Origin: Xylona heveae TC161
Lineage: Eukaryota; Ascomycota; Xylonomycetes; Xylonales; Xylonaceae
Assembly: GCF_001619985.1 (NCBI RefSeq)
Contig: NW_017264196.1
Location: 806,001-870,000, forward strand
DNA: 64,000 nt
Direction of reading: 5' to 3'
Below, piece by piece: positions 4,736 to 62,100 of this stretch. The notes below the pieces were generated by a model that was given only the letters and a program-made list of their open reading frames with translations, did no database searches and was not told the DNA's origin. Each line of letters begins with the position of its first letter. The stretch's first letter is position 1. The position numbers and the translations under genes are program-made.

Positions 4736-5643
4736 CTACTTGGCCGTGGTCTGAGACATGTGAGTCTTCCGTGACTGCGTTTTTTTGCTCCATTGCAGAT
4801 ATATGCTTCTCTTTTTGCATTTCATGGGTCTTGTAACTAGGTTCATGTTCTTACAAAAATGTACATTTTTTTTTGGGATTATAGATATGAGGTGTTGAGA
4901 GCAGCTTATGAAGCTTGACATAATATGGTGGCTTGAAGCTAATGCCGTTCATGGTAAGGGGTACGGAATCAGTAATCATCTCCAAACAGAGCGTACTATT
5001 CGCCTTAGAGAGAAAGATAGTATCTGTCAAATTGCTTTGAACATGGACGCAATAGAAAACCTGTGTTGGGCATTGCATAGTGGTAAATCGTAGATGGCCA
5101 TTTTTATTGAGTGGTCCATCACAGGCAAGCTTGAGGGAGTCTGGGATGATAAGGGGGAGGTTTGTGATTTCTCTCTTTCCGGTTGATATTGCAGCCCAAA
5201 AAATACCGTTACACACCAAAGTCAATGATCGCCATCGGATTTTTAAATTTTATGACAATTTCAATGGATTTATTTGGGATGATTTCGAGATTCCCATGGC
5301 CGAAAGTTGCCCTGACAGCGACGATCGTCATGGGCCCCCACTTTAGCGGTAACAGCTCTTTGGTATGACGTACCTGGTTTCGCGCAAAAACGGGGAATCC
5401 TAGCCGTCTAGGTTGCCGTAGCTCCAACCTCGGGCAATTTGCCCAGTTTCTCCCAAGACATATACCAAAGCCACTGCGCCCGTGATCTTTGACTTCTTCC
5501 ATCCCATCGACCTCCCATCCCATCTTATTGCCAATTTCAAGCCCTTAGCTGAGGTGAGTCTCATAATTTAATTCCCGTTTGATTAGAACGCATTACTAAA
5601 GCCACTTAGCTATTTCCCCTCGTCTTCAGCCCAACTTCAAAAG
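4736..5643. other. Upstream region of aquaporin-like and OM14-like genes
   Basis: Divergent promoter space. An open minus-strand frame at 5225-4851 (124 codons, Cys-containing, no match I recognise) and the frame that runs into it from 5523 cannot be joined convincingly, so no gene is called. Confidence 0.4.
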
Positions 5644-6390
5644 ATGTCTTACGCCGAAGCTGCTGCTCGTGGACCCAAGCAGTCCCCCGAAGAGGTACGT
5701 TGCTCTAGATCTGGAGGATATCTCCATTATCCTTGTGAGACTTATAAGGGTCATAAGCTAATAAGATATCCCAGGCGTAAGTTACCTTGGACATACTGCG
5801 TCCCTTCCAGCTGCGGGCACTCTCTTGTTGATGCCCGGAGTGGATTGATGCGCAGATTCTTTTTTTGGCATGTGAAAAGCTGACATCGTTTCAGACGCGC
5901 TCCCGCTCCTCCGCAGGTTGTGCACGATGAGGGCAGCGTGAGCTCTTTGATCGACGTCGACAGCCCGCACGTCTCGAGTGTGCCTTCGGACTATGAATCG
6001 CAGTCGGTGAAGACCGATACCCAGGCCCTGCGCATTGAGCACGAAGAGGAGGATAAGCAGCGTGAGGAGGAGCGCAAGAAGGCTGCTGCCAAAGCCAAGG
6101 CCCACAAGGGTGGTAAGAAGATCAAGGAAAACGTCGACAACCCCGTCGTCCTCGGCAACGCAGTCGCAGTTGTTGGTTTGGGAAGCGTGCTCGGTTGGGG
6201 CGCATACCGGAAATACATTGCTGGAGAGCTTTCGTGGAAGGTTGTCGGTGCTTGGGCTGGCATCGTTGGCCTCTTCGCTGCAGGCGACTACTACCTTAGC
6301 AAGTAAGTTTTTATTCCGCTTATCAAACATCTTTACGCTCTTGCTCACAGTCCTTGCAGGTATCTCTTCAGAAAGTACCCCACGAAATAA
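5644..6390 (+). CDS. OM14: OM14-like mitochondrial outer-membrane protein
   Basis: Small outer-membrane protein; yeast OM14 is a receptor for the nascent-chain complex on mitochondria. Best model has exons 5644-5694, 5775-5776 (only 2 nt), 5895-6302 and 6360-6390, giving 163 residues. The N-terminus MSYAEAAARGPKQSPEE is followed by ARAPAPPQ, then an acidic stretch, a Lys/Ala-rich helix (about residues 60-90), and two hydrophobic segments (NAVAVVGLGSVLGWGAYRKY and GAWAGIVGLFAAGDYYLSKY) ending in a short basic tail. The 2-nt exon is needed to keep frame into RAPAPPQ; the only alternative is a single 222-nt intron with acceptor at 5916. The last intron is required to pass a TAA at 6304-6306. Assignment rests on overall architecture and remembered family sequence. 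Confidence 0.75.
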
Positions 6391-24149: not shown

Positions 24150-26529
24150 TCATGGCCGCGGTGCGCGATGATAACTCTCACCGCCACCAAGATCGGAAGA
24201 CGACGCTCCCACTGCTGTGGCAATGTTCCCAGGCTGCTGGAAGCTGACAGCATGAGCAGTCGTGTCGGCTTCTGGAGGAGCTGCCACGGGATGGTTATTG
24301 TCAATATATGTCGCAAAGTCCCAGGAACCCCTGCCGCTGCCCGCGACACTCGGTAGTCCGGATGTAGGTTGCCGATGTGTGAGCTGCACGTGTGATGGCT
24401 GCTGTGGCTGCCAATGATGTTGTGGTTGATGTGGTTGATGGTGATGATGATGCTGAGGATCTTGAGTTGACCCTAATGTGGGAATAGACAATCGAAGTTC
24501 CGATGGTCCTGGAGGTGACCGAAGACCTCCAACCGCTGCCATTCGTAAATTGGGCGAACGTACAGTTGATGTCATGCCGGTAGTGTAAACTGACGAGGTG
24601 ATCGACTCAGTAGTGGAACGGGGCGATGCTGTCGCATGGTGTTCAGTACCTGTCTCGGACGGCACCCCGCTAGCATATCCCGTAGAGCTCACAGGAGTCA
24701 GAAGAGCGCCAGCGGTCGAGGAATAGCTTGCCGACTGTGTACAAACTCAATCAGAGATTGTTCTCTGGCTGCGGAGGGAAAAGATGAAAAAGGAGATGGC
24801 GGACTTACATATTTGCCAATAATTTTCTTCAAGGCATGAGACAAGATTTTCCATGGAAAGACCTTTACATCCTTCTCAATATTCCTTGGTTTCGGGTTTG
24901 GAAATCCCATAATGACTTTGAAAAATTCTTCGCTGTCGGGCTTGGCTTTGGAGACTGTCAGTGGCCGGAACCCTTCCAAGTTTCTGCGAATCCTGTTCTT
25001 CTCCTCCACAGTAAAGCGAACAGCAACCAAGGACTCTAGCAAATAGATGGTATCGACACTGGTAACAAAGCATTCCTGCTTCTCCTCCCACCAAATGCAG
25101 CTTATGCAGATGCTGTTAGGCGTTCGATCTTCAAGCGTTACAGGCTGAAACGACGTCTGAATGGTTGAGCCAGTTTGTTTGCGTGTAAATTGAACTAGTC
25201 GCCTCTTCGCATCCCATTCGGTGCGACTCCATCCCTCGGCCATGGCATCAAGATCGCCTTCAATCTTCAAAACGGCCTTGTGAGGATAAATCGCATAAGG
25301 GTTGAATGCTTGACTCCCTTGGCTTACACCAGCTGGCGTAGTCGCAGGGCTAGGAGAATGTTGAATGGTTGAGGTCCGAATCAGAGGTGGGTTGGCCATG
25401 CTTGAAGGAGACGAGATCCGCTGCAACCGACTTGCGTTTGAGTCGGGTATTTGCCTTGGACTTCGGCTCAACGCGCTGTAAGCCGAGTAGGGACTCCAGG
25501 CGGGGGAGTTTGGTGCAGCTACTTTGGTCGTCGGGTTTACATTTGGTCCAGAAGCATACTGATACTGGTATTGTCGCGGAGATATTTGTGGTTGATAGTT
25601 TGAGGGCCCCAGCGACCTGTCGTAGCCGGTAGAGTAGGAGTAGGCGGTACTAGCGACAGGAGGTTGAAGATATGGCGAATACGGCGATCCAGTTGGTTGC
25701 ATATAAGAATAGCTACCGAAATCGTCGCCGACTTTGTTGCGCAGCTGCTGACCGGAGGATCGCTTGGCCGGTGTTCGCGCAGCGTCCACTGAACCAACAG
25801 AGCCTTTTCTCTTCCGCGAACTCTCTTGAGGCGAGTTGTACGCGGCTTGATAAGTTCCGTCAGTATATGTAAAATTTCCGACTTCCACAACGCCTACGTC
25901 TTGGCTGGAACCGTCCTCGACCCTCAAGGAGACACCAACCAGCGGTTCAAGCCAACCAGTGGAGGAAAGCGGCGGAACTGTAGCGGTCAATGTGTAGAAT
26001 CCGTACTGACTGCGAGGATCAGCCTGATCCATCGGCGTTACCATAGCTGCACATTGCTTGGAACCAAACATCAGTGACAAAGACAAATGCGATTCAGACG
26101 TGATATCATAGACTGTTCGAATATACACGTAAATTTTCGCTCCTGCTGAGCCCTTGGATGGACTGTAAGAGGTCACCTCGGGGAGCGGCCGTGCAGATAG
26201 GTCAAGCAGTGACTGGGAGGGCTCGCCATAAGCAGCTGGGGCATGATATTGTGATGTAGTCACGAGCGATAACGGTCCTGGGTTGCTACCATGTGGTAGT
26301 CCGGCCTGCGGACCAGCATACTGAGAAGGAAAGGGAGGCTGAGTAGAGGCATAAACATGCTCCTGAAGTGCGCGAGGCGCGTTGTATTCTGAAGGGAGCC
26401 TGTTAGCCTAGCGATCGCCTCACGTGTGCGCTACCGGGTGTGGCTGGTGGGAGGGTAGCAGTTGCAAAGTAGGTCAGATGAACGTAACTTACCGTACAGA
26501 TGAGGTGCGGACTTCTCGTAATTCGACAT
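24150..26529 (-). CDS. medA: Developmental regulator Medusa (MedA)
   Basis: Nuclear regulator of conidiation, adherence and sexual development in Aspergillus; related to Acr1 of Magnaporthe and Ren1 of Fusarium. Exons 26529-26493, 26388-24809 and 24734-24150 give 733 residues beginning MSNYEKSAPHLYEYNAPRAL. The conserved domain covers the central part: SYSPSKGSAGAKIYVYIRTV, LMFGSKQCAAMVTPM (an IPT-like N-terminal block, about residues 80-190) and the C-terminal block KAVLKIEGDLDAMAEGWSRT through VMGFPNPKPRNIEKDVKVFP (about 390-525). The last exon is low-complexity, with a His/Gln-rich run. An in-frame ATG at 26667 would extend the protein by 46 residues; the 26529 start is preferred because it matches the conserved family N-terminus as I remember it. 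Confidence 0.92.
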
Positions 26530-39377: not shown

Positions 39378-42300
39378 ATGCCTTCTCCTTTTACATCAAG
39401 TTTTGCATCGGCTGCGGCCATCAACAGTAACGCAGATGGGAGCTCCACGCGAGCGTCCCTGAGGGGCGATGGTCCCGGTGGCGGGGACTGGTAAGTCACA
39501 AAGGGTTCTCATCACTGTAATTAACTCTGGTATCCATTTGTTGGCGGGGCCAGTGATGTGAAAGCGTTCTTCCGCAGCCAATTTTGGCTGCTTGAATGTT
39601 GTGGGCATTTACTGTTGCTGTTGTCCGAAACGTCAACGTTTGAGTGTCGGGATTTGATTTCATTCGGCAGCCAAAGAATATTGTAACATCAAACTGACAC
39701 CTATATTTATCGAACTAGGCCCCGATCTCGTGTCAATGGAGCTACGCATACTTTTCGTCGTCCTTCCGTTGCGACTAACGCGTCTTCTTCGTCTCAACGC
39801 GATTCTGCACAGCATCAATCATCTAACACGACTTCAAACCCCGGCATCTATGTCCCTCCGCACATTGCATCTGGAACCTCCACCAGCGTGAATCGTACTG
39901 GTAATGTTAGCGACAGTCGGTATTCAAAGGAACAGCTTTTAGATCTCTTCAAGGTCCAACGCGACGTTGGCGATATTTCCAAAAACTTGTCGAGCCTCTT
40001 CATCGGAGGATGGGAGCCGGGGGCCTCTGCGGCGGCGACTCATACTGCTTGGAACAGGCGTGACGAGCGCAACAAGGACTCAACGATTGGGCCGGAAGTT
40101 TGTTGGGACCAAAACGGCAGCGTGGAACCCATGGGGCTATCCAACATGACTGGAGAAGAGAAGGAGGTCTGTCTTGATGCGAATCTAGCAGTTGCTACGA
40201 AAAGGTCGTTTGCTAATTGCGTACTTTAGCTCTTCTCAACCTCTGTCAACTCGCCTTTGAAACCCCCGCCTCAAAATGCGAATAAAGAGAATATTCCTGG
40301 TACCACCGGTGCAAACCGAAAGACTTCCTTATCGCAAAATGCAATGGGCACTTTCAACGCCGCCTCACCCGGCAACGCTCGTCCGAGCAACCGTCGTCGC
40401 GAGACATCGGACTCCCTCAACCAATCTACTCCAGGTGGATCCGGTCGGGCTCTGCGCGAAGAGTCTGGTGCCCCCACCCCACCCCCTTCGCTTTTGAGGA
40501 GAAGGACGGATTTGAAGGACATTGGTAATTCGACCGGCTCCGACGAGCGAGACAAAAGTGGCCCTGGACGAGACAACACTGTTGATTCACCCAATCCATT
40601 TGGCACACTTAAACGCAGTACCACGGGTCCGTTCAATGCCGGCCTGAATGCCCCGGCTTCTCCCTGGTCTTCGGCTGCTTCTCAAAACGCCACGTTTTCT
40701 CCCATGGGAGCCTTTGGAAATTTTTCTTTAGCCGCCCCAGCTGGTCAGCCGCCTACACCGAGCGAGAAGCGGCCTGGCCTAGGCAGCCTGAGAGGCGAAA
40801 GCCGATTCAAAGGTCTGATGGGAGGAGAAAGTAGCGAAGACCTGACTTCGCGCGTAAAGGAAAGGGCAGCTGGTTCTGGGTCGGAGAAGCGCAATGACAC
40901 TGAAGCTGACTCTGCATCTCGTCGGTGGGGGGATGCGAGGTCAGCCAGGCCTTTGAGCAGCGATACAGACCCCTTCGCGGAGGGCGAAGAGCGATCTGGA
41001 AGTGCTGCTCTCGGGGGCGGTCAGGACGTTAGTCCACCCCCTGAAAGCCGCGTCCCTGACCTCAGCGCGCCGAATAGACAGATATCGTCGGATGATTTGG
41101 GCTTCGCGCCGTTTAGCATGTCATCCGAGCTTCCTAGGATCCATGATCTACTCCGTCAAAGTGGTCGAGATTTGCCCCAGGATGGTAGCTCCGGGAGCGA
41201 ACCGTTATCTGGACGCGAGCCCATGAGTCCGACAAACACAAATCCTTACCAAAGCCCCGAGGTGGAGACAGCTGACGCTGATGACATTGACACTGATGGT
41301 TCGGACATTCAGAACACTCATCTGCCCGGATTGAGTGCCTTAGCCAGCGATCCTACTATGGGAATTTTTGGTCCCCAACCTACCAGAGCCGTGTCTGGAT
41401 TTGAGGGTCCCGCAAGTGACCGCAGCCAGACGTCGAGTGTCGGACCCAATCGTGGCTTTCCGTCTCTCGGTGGCCTGGGAGGCCTGGGGGGCCTTGGTAG
41501 CACGACTGGTTGGCCAGCTGGTCCCGGTTCAGTGGGCACTCCGAGCCGGGAGAGGGCCGGGTTTACTGGAGCTTTTGGTGATCCAATTTTTGGGGGAATT
41601 GGTGATTTGCAGTCACCCAGTCTTGCCAGTCATAATGCCAGTGGCCTATTCGGGCCGGGCACTCCTTCAGCCATCGGGAGTGGTGGCTCCGTAGGCCGTG
41701 GGAGCAAGTTGGGCTCTCTCTTTCCCGCATCAATGCAAGAGCAGATGCGAGCTGAAAGCGCGCGGCAGGAGGAAGGACCTCTGGATGGTAGTGATCGACA
41801 ACCTGTTGGCACCTTGCCGGGTCGTCCAGGCTTTCCCGGTGGCTCCGGTGCGTTTGGACCGATAAGCAGAGACACTGGTAGTCCTATGCGTGCTGGACGA
41901 GGAATCTTTGATGATCTTTTGGGCAATCTTGACCCTAGCCGGGGCGTACGTGATGCGGAGTCGTCTTTTTCAGCAAACGATACTCTGCCAGGTTCTTTTG
42001 GCCATGCGCAATCCGCCGGATCTATTCAGCCTCCGCTCCCGGGTGGCTCTAATTCTGCACTGTTGTCGCAAACGCTTGCTCAAGCGCAAGGAAATGCCGC
42101 GAGAGCTGGGCAAGTCAAGATTCCTAGCACTGGGAGCGCGGGCTCTCAGATTCCTGCAACCCAGCAGCGGACAATGGTTATGCCAGACAGAATGCGATGG
42201 ATCTACAAGGATCCGCAGGGCAACACCCAAGGCCCTTGGTCTGGATTGGAAATGCACGATTGGTATAAGGCTGGTTTCTTCTCCCCTGAGCTCTTGGTGA

Positions 42301-45717: not shown

Positions 45718-47487
45718 ATGGTATCCGCAAAAGCTCCCGTGCCTTTTGGCCGCGAGATGCGTAAACAATTCCTCATGGATGACAACTATGTAAATTTGAA
45801 TCACGGTATGTATCTACCTTGAAACGCAACCATCAGATGTGCCCATTATCTTTGCTACACTTTCTTTAAACGTCCCCACGTATTTTCACATGATGCATGA
45901 TAATAGACAAACACCAATTCTTAGAAAAGAAGATAAAAGAAGACAGAAAAAGATAGTTCTGTACTTGACATCAACATTATTTCTTGCTAACCTAAAATAC
46001 AGGCTCATTTGGCACATTTCCTGCTGCCATCCGCAACGTTGCGCGCCAATATCAAGACGAGCAGGAGAGCCGGCCAGATCCATTCATCAGATATGCCTGG
46101 CCGAAACGACTTGATGAGTGCCGGGCCGCCATGGCCCAATATCTAAATGTGCCTGTAGAAACAGTCGTCTTTGTGCCGAATGCAACCACTGGCGTCAACA
46201 CCGTGCTGCGCAGCTTGGTGTTCCAGCCCGGCGACAAGATTGCCTACTTCTCCACCATTTACGGCGCGTGCGAGAAGACAGTGCAGTACATTACTGAGAC
46301 CACGCCCGCTGAGGCGGTCAAGATCCAATACACGTATCCCGTCAGTGACGACGAGTTGGTCGCGAAGCTGCGCGACGCCATCAAGCAGGAGAAAGAAGCA
46401 GGGAATCGTATCAAGGTCGCCATTTTCGACACCATTGTCAGCTTGCCGGGCGTGCGCATGCCGTTTGAACGGCTCACCGATGTGTGTCGAGAGAATGGCG
46501 TCCTCAGTCTGATTGACGGCGCGCATTGCGTTGGTCAGATTCCCATCGACCTGGGTGCTCTCCAGCCAGATTTTTTTGTCAGCAACTGCCACAAGTAAGA
46601 ACAGACCTACCTCCCCCTTTCCATTGTTCAGGCCTAGCATTCTACGCAGAATAATCCACCACATCTATATCCAAACAGAAATCTAACGGACACACCTCTA
46701 ATTAAGATGGCTCTACGTCCCCCGCGGCTGCGCCGTCTTCTATGTGCCCGTCGCAAACCAGCCTCTTATCCGAAGCACGCTTCCCACCTCTCACGGCTTC
46801 ACGGCATTACCCCGCGCCGGCACCACGCCCGTCAACAATCCTCTCCCGCCGAGCAGCAAATCCGCATACGTCACGGCGTTTGAATTCGTCGGCACCATCG
46901 ACTCGACCAACTGGCTCACTGTCCCCGCGGCACTCGAGTTTCGGGACTCCACGTGCGGCGGCGAAACGGCCATTATGCAATACTGCATCGATCTTGCTCG
47001 CGAGGGAGGTAACCTCGTCGCCAGATGTCTGCATCGCATCAGCGACGACGTGGATATCGAGAAACTCGGCCTCGTCATGGAAAATCCAGAGAAGACGCTC
47101 CGTCGATGCGCCTTTGCTAATGTTAGATTGCCGCTGGAGGTTGGCGGGCCCAGTAGCGGAGCCAAAACCCAAGACGCAAAAGACGCAAAAGAAGAAGAAG
47201 AAGAAGAAGACCTAGGCGTCAAGAACCTAACGCTCAAAAGCACGAGCGGCGACGGCCACAGAGTCCGCGCAGAAAACGTCCCCCTCGTGACAAACTACAT
47301 CGCGTCGCGCACGGTCGAGGACCACGATACCTTTGTGGCCATCATCTTCTACGGCGGCGCGTGGTGGGCGCGGCTCTCGGCGCAGATTTATCTCGACTTG
47401 GACGATTTCCGGTTCGCTGCCAAAGTCCTTGATGAGATTTGTGACCGAGTGAAGAGGGGGGAGTATTTGGATGTGCAGAAGGCGTAG
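45718..47487 (+). CDS. Class V aminotransferase (isopenicillin-N-epimerase-like)
   Basis: PLP-dependent enzyme of the aminotransferase V/NifS fold. Exons 45718-45805, 46003-46594 and 46707-47487 give 486 residues. Family features in order: VNLNHGSFGTFPAAIR (substrate loop near the N-terminus), RYAWPKRLDECRAAMAQYL, VFVPNATTGVNTVLRSL (PLP phosphate region), SLIDGAHCVGQIPIDL (Asp and His that hold the pyridine ring), and SNCHKWLYVPRGCAVFYV with the Schiff-base Lys227. The codon of that lysine is split by the second intron (AA|A). A fungus-specific insert before the last strands contains an acidic run from a GAA repeat. Likely a cysteine desulfurase- or epimerase-like activity of unknown substrate. 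Confidence 0.9.
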
Positions 47488-59110: not shown

Positions 59111-62100
59111 TTACTGAAGGAACTTTTCGAAAAGCAAATTGTTTTAGTTGCTTGCGTTATGGTGGCTTGCAGAAATAATGATCTGGTCATTTTGATGAAC
59201 TGGCAGCAGCAGCTGGTCTTTAAATATGAAAATTGTTGTTTTTATTATAACATAAAGTAAGTGTTGACCCGAGGAAAATAAATAGATTTGCAGTGTTCAA
59301 ACCATGAAGTTTCAATTATTGTGCGGCACGGCGGCCCTGGCGGCACTGCGGCGGCTGCAGGGGTTGCCAAAAACACATTGTCGAATCGGGTAAATTCATG
59401 AGTTTCGCGTTGCGCGCGCCACGACCACACGTGACTTGAGAGACGCGATGAATATGGGAAGCATTAATTTGTAGAAGATGTTAAACTTTTATACGGCAGC
59501 GGGTGGGCATTTCTGGTAGTGATGGTAGCCCATTAACATGGTGATTTTTGCGCGTAATCATCTGGTTCAATAATTATAAGTGGTGATGCTCTCTGTATGA
59601 ATATATCTATCGAGGGGTTTGGTAGGTCGGGCTACGGGTTGTGATTGACTTGAACGAATTCACCCCAGGAATAAATTAATACTAGGGCTCCATTTCCATG
59701 CGGAATCATACACCATCGCACTTGAATACTTGCCCCGCTATGGACTAAAATTTTCTTGTCAGGGCCTGGTCCAGACTAATCGGAGTCGTCGTCAGGTCAT
59801 ATTGTCCACTCGGTGGAACCTTTGATGATACACGCGTTCCTACAGAGTAAACGTTGGACATGTCAGACGTTTGAGGCTGTCTGACAGCCGGTACAGATCC
59901 AGTGGGGGATGTGTCACCGCCTGAATGGGCAACGAATGGCGGCGTTGGAAAGAACTGGGGCATGTTTCAGATGATATTATACGTCGCATCGTGGTTTATG
60001 CTACAAAGTACATACATTATCCACATCAAGCTTATGGGTATACCTTCACCGCAACTGCCTCGGACTTTTACACGGAAACAATTTGTTCTTGATAGCACTG
60101 AATAGTATCTGAGAAGGTCTGAAATGCTTGATGCAGATACCAGTCTCGTCATCATTGTTGATCAACCTTATACTGTGTCGATCAAAGTGGACGAGATCTG
60201 AGCAATTCATGGCTGCAAGTAATTTGGGGGGGAGGAGGTTATGATGGAGGGTTATAACCAGTGCAAGGGAGGGACTAGCCTGAAACCGTTCACTTGAGAC
60301 GGAACGAAGAGCGAGGGGATTTGAGACCAATAAAATTGAATTACCACCGTAGATTGGCGAGACTATAACTGTACTCTCGGTAGATGGTGTCTTTGGGCCC
60401 GTGGTCCATCAAGTACCGGTACGGGCGGACAACGGTGGCTGAGTGTGTTACGGCAGGAGTCCAGCCCACGCGAGCGGATAAAAGGGTCCAGAAAGAGAAA
60501 GAGGCAAGAACAGCAGAAGATCTGTGTGGGGTTTTTCTTGAGGGAGCGCCATCCCTTGTGTTCTACGCCGCAAAGAAAGGGAGAGTACTGGTACTTTGGC
60601 TCCAACCTTGGCTCGTATCGTCAAGTCCACGGATACATTTCCTTTGGATATATCTTCGTATGTCTCCTTGATGCAGCTTACCCGTACACACCAAACATGG
60701 CCCAAGCGTAGACCCGATCCACTTCACAGGTCAATTAGTTCCGTCCTCCATACGAGAGGGAGAGACACCGTAAGATGGTGTGGTCCGTTCATGTTCCTGC
60801 TTCAGGGTACGAAACAACGGTCATAAAATAATAATGCAAAGCTGCCAAATGTCAGCGATAAGAGACCCACTCCCTCGCCGCACACGAGCTTACATGTACA
60901 GTATATGTCTGTCTGTATTGATCATGTTCCCCAATGGCGTCCAGGCGTCCATGCAAAGTATATATTCAAGATATCAAACTCCTCGTGCTGGGCTCTTTGA
61001 CGTTTCAGTTTTGGTCAGCAAGCCACTCTGCAGTCAATTTCAAATACGCTGCACTTTAGATGATCCTGAATAATGGAAGGGAGAAGGAACGGGTGCGCAC
61101 AGGCAGCCAATACAGTCGAACTTTCGATTCATAGTAGAAGATGCATATACTTCTTGAAACGATAGAAATCTATTAGGGACGTGCAAGAATTAATCATCCC
61201 AGCATACGAATCTCAATCTTGCAATTGTAGCATGTAGTCTCTTGGAGAGATTTCGGAAAATTATAGTGGCGCCTTCCCGGTTCATGCCACGCCTGGCTTT
61301 CGAGACGCCTTTTTTCTCCCCAACCAGACCGAAACTGGCCCCCGCGAACATCAGCCTGATCCGACCATTTCAAATTTCCCACGGCTTTTCCCCTTCGAAT
61401 TGTGAGCTGGCATATTCTGCTTCTGAATTTCAGCAGCTTCAATCCCTTCTATGAGCGGTTGCACTGTTCGCTTCATTTACCCCCCGTTCTTTAAGGGTCT
61501 TCGCAGTTAGGTAAGTGAATTAAACTTTAAATCCACCTTACCAGTCTGGGCTCTGCCACTCTCGCTCCGCATCCAACCCTCCGTCCTATCCACGCTTGTC
61601 CAACAACCTCCGTTGCTATCAAGCTTCAACCCATACACTCACCCATGCTTGCCTTATGTCCTATGGGCAGCGTGGCACAAGAAGGATCTTCTGGAGAGCA
61701 ACATTCACTGACCTTCAAAGTGCAATCGCTCGGGCTGGCCACAGATACATGTTGATCTTCGCTCGCAGCACCATCTCAAGCCAGCTCCGGCCCCTGCGGT
61801 GACGATCATCTCTCGTGCCTGCGCAAACATTCCAACATCGTCCACTTTCGTTGTTTGCTACTTCCGTCTCTCCCTCGATCTCTTGCTCCCTCGTCTGATT
61901 TTGTTCACACACGGGTGCTGTTTGGCACACCCACCTTCAAGGATCTGTGGTGTGCACTTCGCTCGCCCAGGGGACACTGTCTTTCCTGATTGCTCAGCAA
62001 CCCCTACTCAATCGACAATCCGGCACCCATAACAATCAACAAGGTCACACTTGGTAGCTACTGGACGAATTCGAGTTTCCATTGGTCCTAAAAGGCACGG

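What the first reader, a model, noticed from the sequence alone, without database searches (positions are those of the whole stretch)
5695..5894. A 2-nt microexon in the OM14-like gene
Directly seen: 5695-5774 is a good intron (GTACGT ... GCTAAT branch ... CCCAG) and 5777-5894 is another (GTAAGT ... GCTGAC branch ... TTTCAG), leaving only GC at 5775-5776 between them. Joining 5694 directly to 5895 shifts frame and hits a TGA within about 12 codons. Inserting the two bases restores an open frame reading SPEE-A-RAPAPPQVVHDEG. The rival model, one 222-nt intron using the AG at 5916, is in frame but needs an unusually long intron, ignores two strong splice sites and drops the RAPAPPQ peptide. Exons this small challenge exon-definition models and are missed by gene predictors.
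Basis: partly seen in the sequence, partly recalled or inferred. Interest (0 to 1): 0.75.

Follow-up and report, generated by a model that had tools for sequence, protein, structure and literature searches.

The report
Likely two-base exon in fungal gene
A fungal gene for a probable mitochondrial outer-membrane protein seems to carry an exon only two bases long between two normal introns, which is rare and easily missed by gene-finding software but not without precedent, and it still needs RNA evidence.

Summary
The sequence features are exactly as described. Two complete U2-type introns, 5695-5774 and 5777-5894, leave only GC (5775-5776) between them. Skipping GC hits a stop 11 codons after SPEE; including it gives a 163-aa protein. 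A splice model trained on the window ranks this structure first of 492 enumerated in-frame routes and ahead of three re-scored alternatives in 9 of 9 settings, though by only 0.6-2.1 nats once the branch-distance prior is flattened. The 222-nt rival must skip TTTCAG 12 nt after its branch point and use an AG 34 nt away; 0 of 25 predicted core introns skip a YAG, and their branch distances are 8-24 nt. Shuffled interiors give an equally good frame-restoring exon in 6 of 3000 trials. The evidence is sequence-only: no orthologue or transcript could be reached, coding potential does not favour the eight extra residues, and one credible 197-nt intron exists. Such exons are known: 1 nt in Fusarium CYP621A (PMC12940212), 3 nt in another ascomycete (PMC5639578), 1 nt in plants. 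Verdict: probably real (about 0.74), a new member of a known kind. It does not challenge exon definition, since short-intron fungi use intron definition (recalled).

The parts
5554..5629 (+). probable 5' UTR intron (76 nt, GTGAGT...TTCAG)
   Evidence: sequence; scored 3.67, donor 5.83, acceptor 4.43
5644..5694 (+). coding exon 1, MSYAEAAARGPKQSPEE (ATG at 5644)
   Evidence: sequence; translation
5695..5774 (+). intron A, 80 nt: GTACGT, branch GCTAAT 5757-5762, CCCAG
   Evidence: total score at the 72nd percentile of 25 core introns; donor in the top 0.9% of + strand GTs in the window
5775..5776 (+). two-base exon GC; with A5895 it makes the Ala codon GCA
   Evidence: lies between the two introns; needed to keep the frame if 5894 is the acceptor
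5777..5894 (+). intron B, 118 nt: GTAAGT, branch GCTGAC 5879-5884, TTTCAG
   Evidence: 12th percentile of 25 core introns in total score, with a strong length penalty; acceptor in the top 3.6% of + strand AGs
5895..6302 (+). main coding exon, including RAPAPPQ and the first hydrophobic segment
   Evidence: open frame 5884-6306; Pfam OM14_C match begins at residue 99
5895..5916 (+). 22 nt that are coding in the two-base-exon model and intron tail in the rival; 77% G+C
   Evidence: 25 core introns have at most 64% G+C in their last 22 nt
6303..6359 (+). last intron, 57 nt
   Evidence: score 5.43
6360..6390 (+). last coding exon, ends at the TAA stop
   Evidence: sequence; translation

Best explanation
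The gene encodes a 163-aa OM14-like protein from four coding exons, the second being the two bases GC (5775-5776). Introns A (80 nt) and B (118 nt) each carry their own donor, branch point and acceptor, so each can be recognised across the intron, not across the exon. The donor of B starts 2 nt after the acceptor of A, so both sites probably cannot be engaged at once. The introns are therefore most likely removed one after the other, in either order; after the first removal the two bases belong to a normal-sized exon. Shown: the sites, the frame, and the ranking of models. Inferred: that splicing happens this way, in sequence, and that GC is included constitutively.
For: All six splice elements are present. 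The structure is first of 492 enumerated in-frame routes: 5.89, against 2.49 for a route with a 16-nt exon and 2.01 for the 222-nt intron; second, at 4.44, is the same GC exon with acceptor 5963. It led the three re-scored alternatives in 9 of 9 settings (three splice matrices, three length models), by 3.0-5.9 nats over the 222-nt intron, or 4.0-6.9 with intron composition added. 0 of 25 core introns skip a YAG at least 9 nt past the branch, and branch distances are 8-24 nt, with the distance prior and without it; the rival needs 34 and skips TTTCAG at 12. The rival's 22-nt tail is 77% G+C against a core maximum of 64%. Frame-restoring exon in 6 of 3000 shuffles. The five other splicing outcomes translated, apart from the 222-nt one, give only 18-79 aa.
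Against: No transcript and no orthologue was available. Margins shrink with a flat branch-distance prior: 3.46 against 2.84 (16-nt-exon route), 1.80 (GC exon with acceptor 5963) and 1.37 (222-nt). In one search the narrowest margin was 1.5 nats, over the variant with acceptor 5963, and 2.1 nats over the 16-nt-exon route. The eight extra codons are not favoured by coding potential: CDS score -5.17 with them, -3.69 without; the 22 nt fit coding and intron composition about equally (-26.3 against -25.4 for intron body and -27.0 for intron tail). The window-trained coding model scores the whole CDS negative in either version, and the free gene finder used the 5694/GC/5895 junctions but with implausible outer exons. 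My exon-length prior is a plain geometric, generous to tiny exons, and the finder also made 3-nt and 4-nt exons elsewhere, the 3-nt one looking spurious. The core introns are themselves predictions; 3 of 25 skip an AG that is not a YAG. An unrelated tandem with an 8-nt exon reaches the same score on the - strand. One 197-nt intron is credible. Intron B ranks low (12th percentile).
Confidence: 0.74

Rival explanations
1. A single 222-nt intron 5695-5916 is removed, giving a 155-aa protein with SPEE joined to VVHDEG; the inner sites are chance.
For: In frame and open. A credible 197-nt intron exists in the window. 5895-5916 is pyrimidine-rich and ends CGCAG|G. Coding potential slightly prefers leaving those codons out.
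Against: Needs a branch-to-acceptor distance of 34 nt (core range 8-24) and skips TTTCAG; 0 of 25 core introns skip a YAG. Tail 77% G+C. Lower score in 9 of 9 settings and with a flat branch-distance prior. Must ignore a complete 80-nt intron sharing the same donor.
Confidence: 0.14
2. A [D1,2] stwintron-like route: internal intron 5695-5781 is removed first, G5694 then joins T5782 to make a new donor, and the external intron ends at 5894, giving SPEE-RAPAPPQ (162 aa) without a two-base exon.
For: It is in frame and open through the whole protein; stwintrons of this type are known in ascomycetes (PMC12403724, abstract and passages).
Against: External donor GTTACC scores -0.43; internal acceptor is AAG (0.31) and skips CCCAG 7 nt upstream, while GTAAGT would be cut in two.
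Confidence: 0.03
3. Another multi-exon route, for example exon 1 extended to 5734, a 16-nt exon 5811-5826, then 5895 (SPEEVRCSRSGGYLHYPSAGTLLRAPAPPQ).
For: In frame; score 2.49, and only 0.6 nats behind with a flat branch-distance prior; the exon-1 frame is open to 5880.
Against: Lower score in 9 of 9 settings and requires ignoring GTACGT at 5695.
Confidence: 0.05
4. Assembly error or decayed gene: the bases at this place are an artefact or the gene is no longer functional, and there is no exon at 5775-5776.
For: Cannot be excluded without reads; no relative to compare.
Against: The model reads open end to end, with good UTR and last introns.
Confidence: 0.04

Closest known systems
One-nucleotide exon of CYP621A in Fusarium (Nelson and Syed 2026, PMC12940212; parts 1 and 2 of 3 read)
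   Same: Ascomycete gene; two complete introns flank a sub-codon exon; omission breaks the frame; missed by annotation.
   Different: 1 nt there and 2 nt here; 20 orthologues, an intronless relative and 18 RNA reads there, none here; a P450 there.
Single-nucleotide exon of Arabidopsis APC11 (PMC4674806, outline and abstract) and 1-nt exons of APC11 and VPS55 in land plants (PMC8831610, passages)
   Same: Sub-codon exon between two introns.
   Different: Plant; shown by transcripts and, for APC11, reporter constructs; 1 nt.
Two 3-nt exons in the duplicated lipS genes of Dactylellina haptotyla (PMC5639578, one passage)
   Same: Tiny exons in an ascomycete.
   Different: Whole-codon length; mentioned in passing.
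20-nt microexon of Trichoderma Xlr2 (PMC11121469, passages)
   Same: Filamentous ascomycete; microexon missed by annotation.
   Different: Ten times longer and regulated by glucose; no regulation shown here.
[D1,2] stwintrons (PMC12403724, abstract and passages)
   Same: Two U2 introns removed in succession from what looks like one long intron; the pair can also be removed as one big intron.
   Different: There the internal intron splits the external donor; here the donor GTAAGT is intact and two coding bases lie between the introns.

Membership tests
Ultra-short (1-3 nt) protein-coding exon | Flanked on both sides by complete canonical introns | tested here: met
   sites; scores
Ultra-short (1-3 nt) protein-coding exon | Its omission breaks the reading frame | tested here: met
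   5694 joined to 5895 gives 28 aa against 163 aa; joining 5694 to 5917 instead stays in frame (155 aa)
Ultra-short (1-3 nt) protein-coding exon | Present in mature transcripts | not testable with these tools
   no reads or cDNA available
Ultra-short (1-3 nt) protein-coding exon | Residues conserved in orthologues or an intronless relative | tested here: inconclusive
   no relative found in viral contigs or genome contigs, which are viral and prokaryotic collections
[D1,2] stwintron | Internal intron splits the external donor between nt 1 and 2 and leaves a good donor | tested here: not met
   the only junction donor found in frame is GTTACC, score -0.43, with internal acceptor AAG 0.31
OM14 family | Pfam OM14_C at or above the gathering score | tested here: not met
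   25.0 bits against 26.1, E 2.6e-5, residues 99-160 of 163
OM14 family | C-terminal hydrophobic segments (a recalled feature) | tested here: met
   19-residue hydropathy windows above 1.2 span residues 98-122 and 126-152

The most novel reading that the evidence does not exclude
Because the two-base exon plus 5895-5916 adds up to 24 nt, the same donor can yield two in-frame proteins (163 aa with ARAPAPPQ, 155 aa without), while the other five splicing outcomes translated (exon skipped, A kept, B kept, both kept, A out with B spliced to 5916) give 18-79 aa. The abutting, mutually exclusive splice sites could then act as a switch between two isoforms and transcript decay that sets the level of this mitochondrial surface protein.
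Probability: 0.08. Interest if true: 0.6.

Novelty: new member of a known kind. Interest (0 to 1): 0.42.

Why it matters
If RNA confirms it, this would be a two-base exon in a fungal gene unrelated to P450s, supporting the idea that such exons are under-annotated in ascomycetes. It would also give a clean test of how two introns whose sites nearly touch are spliced in turn. Two full-text searches for one- and two-base-exon phrasings listed 17 papers; by their titles and abstract starts none is about a 2-nt exon in a fungal gene (I did not open the passages of the two literal phrase hits, PMC7725694 and PMC5241210). Exons of 2-5 bases in Arabidopsis, Drosophila and human are cited in PMC12940212.

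Tried and rejected
Orthologue search: no own genome is held; no relative was found in viral contigs or genome contigs. A degenerate tail pattern gave two loci, L001 and L002, whose translations around the match do not resemble the query beyond the pattern itself. Rfam and tRNA scans of the window found nothing. The PDB sequence search of the main exon gave no convincing match, best E 0.11. RNA folding of 5680-5940 was somewhat more stable than shuffles (z -2.25, 2 of 200) but does not separate the models. Repeats around the gene are short and look unrelated. Pfam could not decide between the proteins because the OM14_C match does not cover the N terminus (25.0 and 25.4 bits). Rejected: one 200-nt intron 5695-5894 (frame break); B spliced to 5916 after A (25-aa product); the 3-nt exon 40164-40166 made by my gene finder, since an open frame spans 39687-40229 and its upstream intron has weak sites. 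No structure prediction was submitted: the spliced protein is not a direct translation of the window.

Full report
What was checked. Exon 1 runs from ATG 5644 to 5694 (MSYAEAAARGPKQSPEE). Intron A, 5695-5774, begins GTACGT, has GCTAAT and ends CCCAG. GC is at 5775-5776. Intron B, 5777-5894, begins GTAAGT, has GCTGAC and ends TTTCAG. The downstream frame (5884-6306) holds no methionine, so an ATG start must come from upstream. A further intron, 6303-6359, and the stop at 6388-6390 finish a 163-aa protein. The protein matches Pfam OM14_C over residues 99-160 with E 2.6e-5, just under the curated cut-off (25.0 against 26.1 bits).

How the models compare. I trained a simple gene finder on the window: three-periodic coding model, splice and branch matrices started from a recalled generic consensus and retrained on 42 predicted introns. 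The OM14-like gene was not among the 13 genes of its final round. I then scored in-frame GT-AG routes with one or two introns from any ATG in 5301-5960 into the main exon, with the last intron fixed and very weak sites left out: 492 routes, a few of which split the ATG itself. With three splice matrices and three length models it stayed ahead of these three alternatives in 9 of 9 settings; the narrowest margin was 1.5 nats, over the acceptor-5963 variant. All those runs used a prior on the branch-to-acceptor distance centred on 17 nt. With that prior made flat the order of the winner holds but the margins are small: 3.46, then 2.84 (16-nt exon), 1.80 (GC with 5963) and 1.37 (222-nt). The exon-length prior treats a 2-nt exon as no rarer than a plain geometric would, so the score alone does not settle it.

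Why the 222-nt intron is less likely. Of 28 predicted introns with both flanking exons at least 30 nt, 25 are 130 nt or shorter (52-117 nt, median 67); the other three are 175, 197 and 327 nt. The 197-nt one (45806-46002) joins NLNHG to SFGTF, with strong sites and no comparable inner exon; I take the gene for an aminotransferase by recall, since the piece I sent to Pfam had no hit. So a long intron is possible here. But in the 25 core introns the branch-to-acceptor distance is 8-24 nt, with or without the distance prior, and none skips a YAG lying 9 nt or more past the branch; 3 skip some other AG. The rival needs 34 nt and passes over TTTCAG at 12 nt. Its last 22 nt are 77% G+C; the core maximum is 64%. 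By plain Markov composition the 22 nt fit coding and intron about equally, and the codon model gives the extra eight codons a slightly negative score. Those two results do not help the two-base exon. The core introns are themselves predictions, not verified introns.

Chance. Scanning both strands for two adjacent introns (45-160 nt) separated by 12 nt or less, each at least as good as intron B and together as good as A plus B, finds one case on the + strand (this one) and one on the - strand (8-nt exon, introns 61489-61541 and 61423-61480) where the finder called no gene. When the interior 5701-5872 is shuffled keeping dinucleotides, with the outer donor and the 5894 acceptor kept real, 17 of 3000 shuffles give any such exon, 3 a 2-nt exon and 6 a frame-restoring one.

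Mechanism. Both introns are complete, so each can be defined across itself. The donor of B lies two bases behind the acceptor of A, so their recognition complexes probably exclude each other and removal is in turn; whichever goes first leaves the two bases in a normal-sized exon. The three bases before the B donor read GGC both before and after A is removed (5774-5776, or 5694 plus 5775-5776; seen), so the B donor does not depend on the order in these bases. Skipping the exon gives 28 aa, keeping B gives 18 aa, keeping A gives 59 aa, keeping both gives 79 aa. The order, the efficiency and any decay of the failed products are inference.

If intron A ended at the AAG of GTAAG (5781), G5694 plus T5782 would form a new donor, as in a [D1,2] stwintron, and removal to 5894 gives SPEE-RAPAPPQ in frame (162 aa). 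The sites are weak (donor -0.43, acceptor 0.31) and I rate it at about 3%. RNA reads would tell the outcomes apart.

Known context. A one-nucleotide exon with comparative and read support was reported in 2026 in Fusarium CYP621A (PMC12940212; parts 1 and 2 of 3 read), which calls it the first such fungal case. A passage of PMC5639578 mentions two 3-nt exons in Dactylellina haptotyla. Plants have 1-nt exons in APC11 and VPS55 (PMC4674806 outline and abstract; PMC8831610 passages). A 20-nt switch-like microexon is known in Trichoderma (PMC11121469 passages). Term searches inside two stwintron papers, PMC6616335 and PMC7138796, found no mention of tiny exons. So the kind is known; length 2 in a fungal gene, and this gene, did not turn up in my searches, of which I saw the listings only, apart from the papers named here.

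Verdict. The two-base exon is the best explanation at about 0.74, awaiting RNA reads. It is a rare but precedented feature, and it does not challenge exon definition, since short-intron fungi splice by intron definition (recalled).

Noticed in passing
5554-5629: Probable 5' UTR intron (GTGAGT...TTCAG) upstream of the OM14-like start codon.
   Followed up: partly
5695-5781 with G5694: In-frame [D1,2] stwintron-like alternative with weak sites.
   Followed up: yes
5644-5880: Exon-1 frame stays open through intron A and most of intron B, so the form with both introns kept could encode a 79-aa product.
   Followed up: partly
45806-46002: Credible 197-nt intron in a gene that looks like an aminotransferase by recall; no internal microexon found.
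   Followed up: yes
61423-61541: Minus-strand tandem of two intron-like stretches separated by 8 nt, equal in score to the finding, where no gene was called; probably chance.
   Followed up: partly
5680-5940: Predicted RNA fold is more stable than shuffles (z -2.25, 2 of 200 as stable).
   Followed up: no
24698-26407: Minus-strand protein with DUF7082 (E 1.9e-75), function unknown.
   Followed up: no
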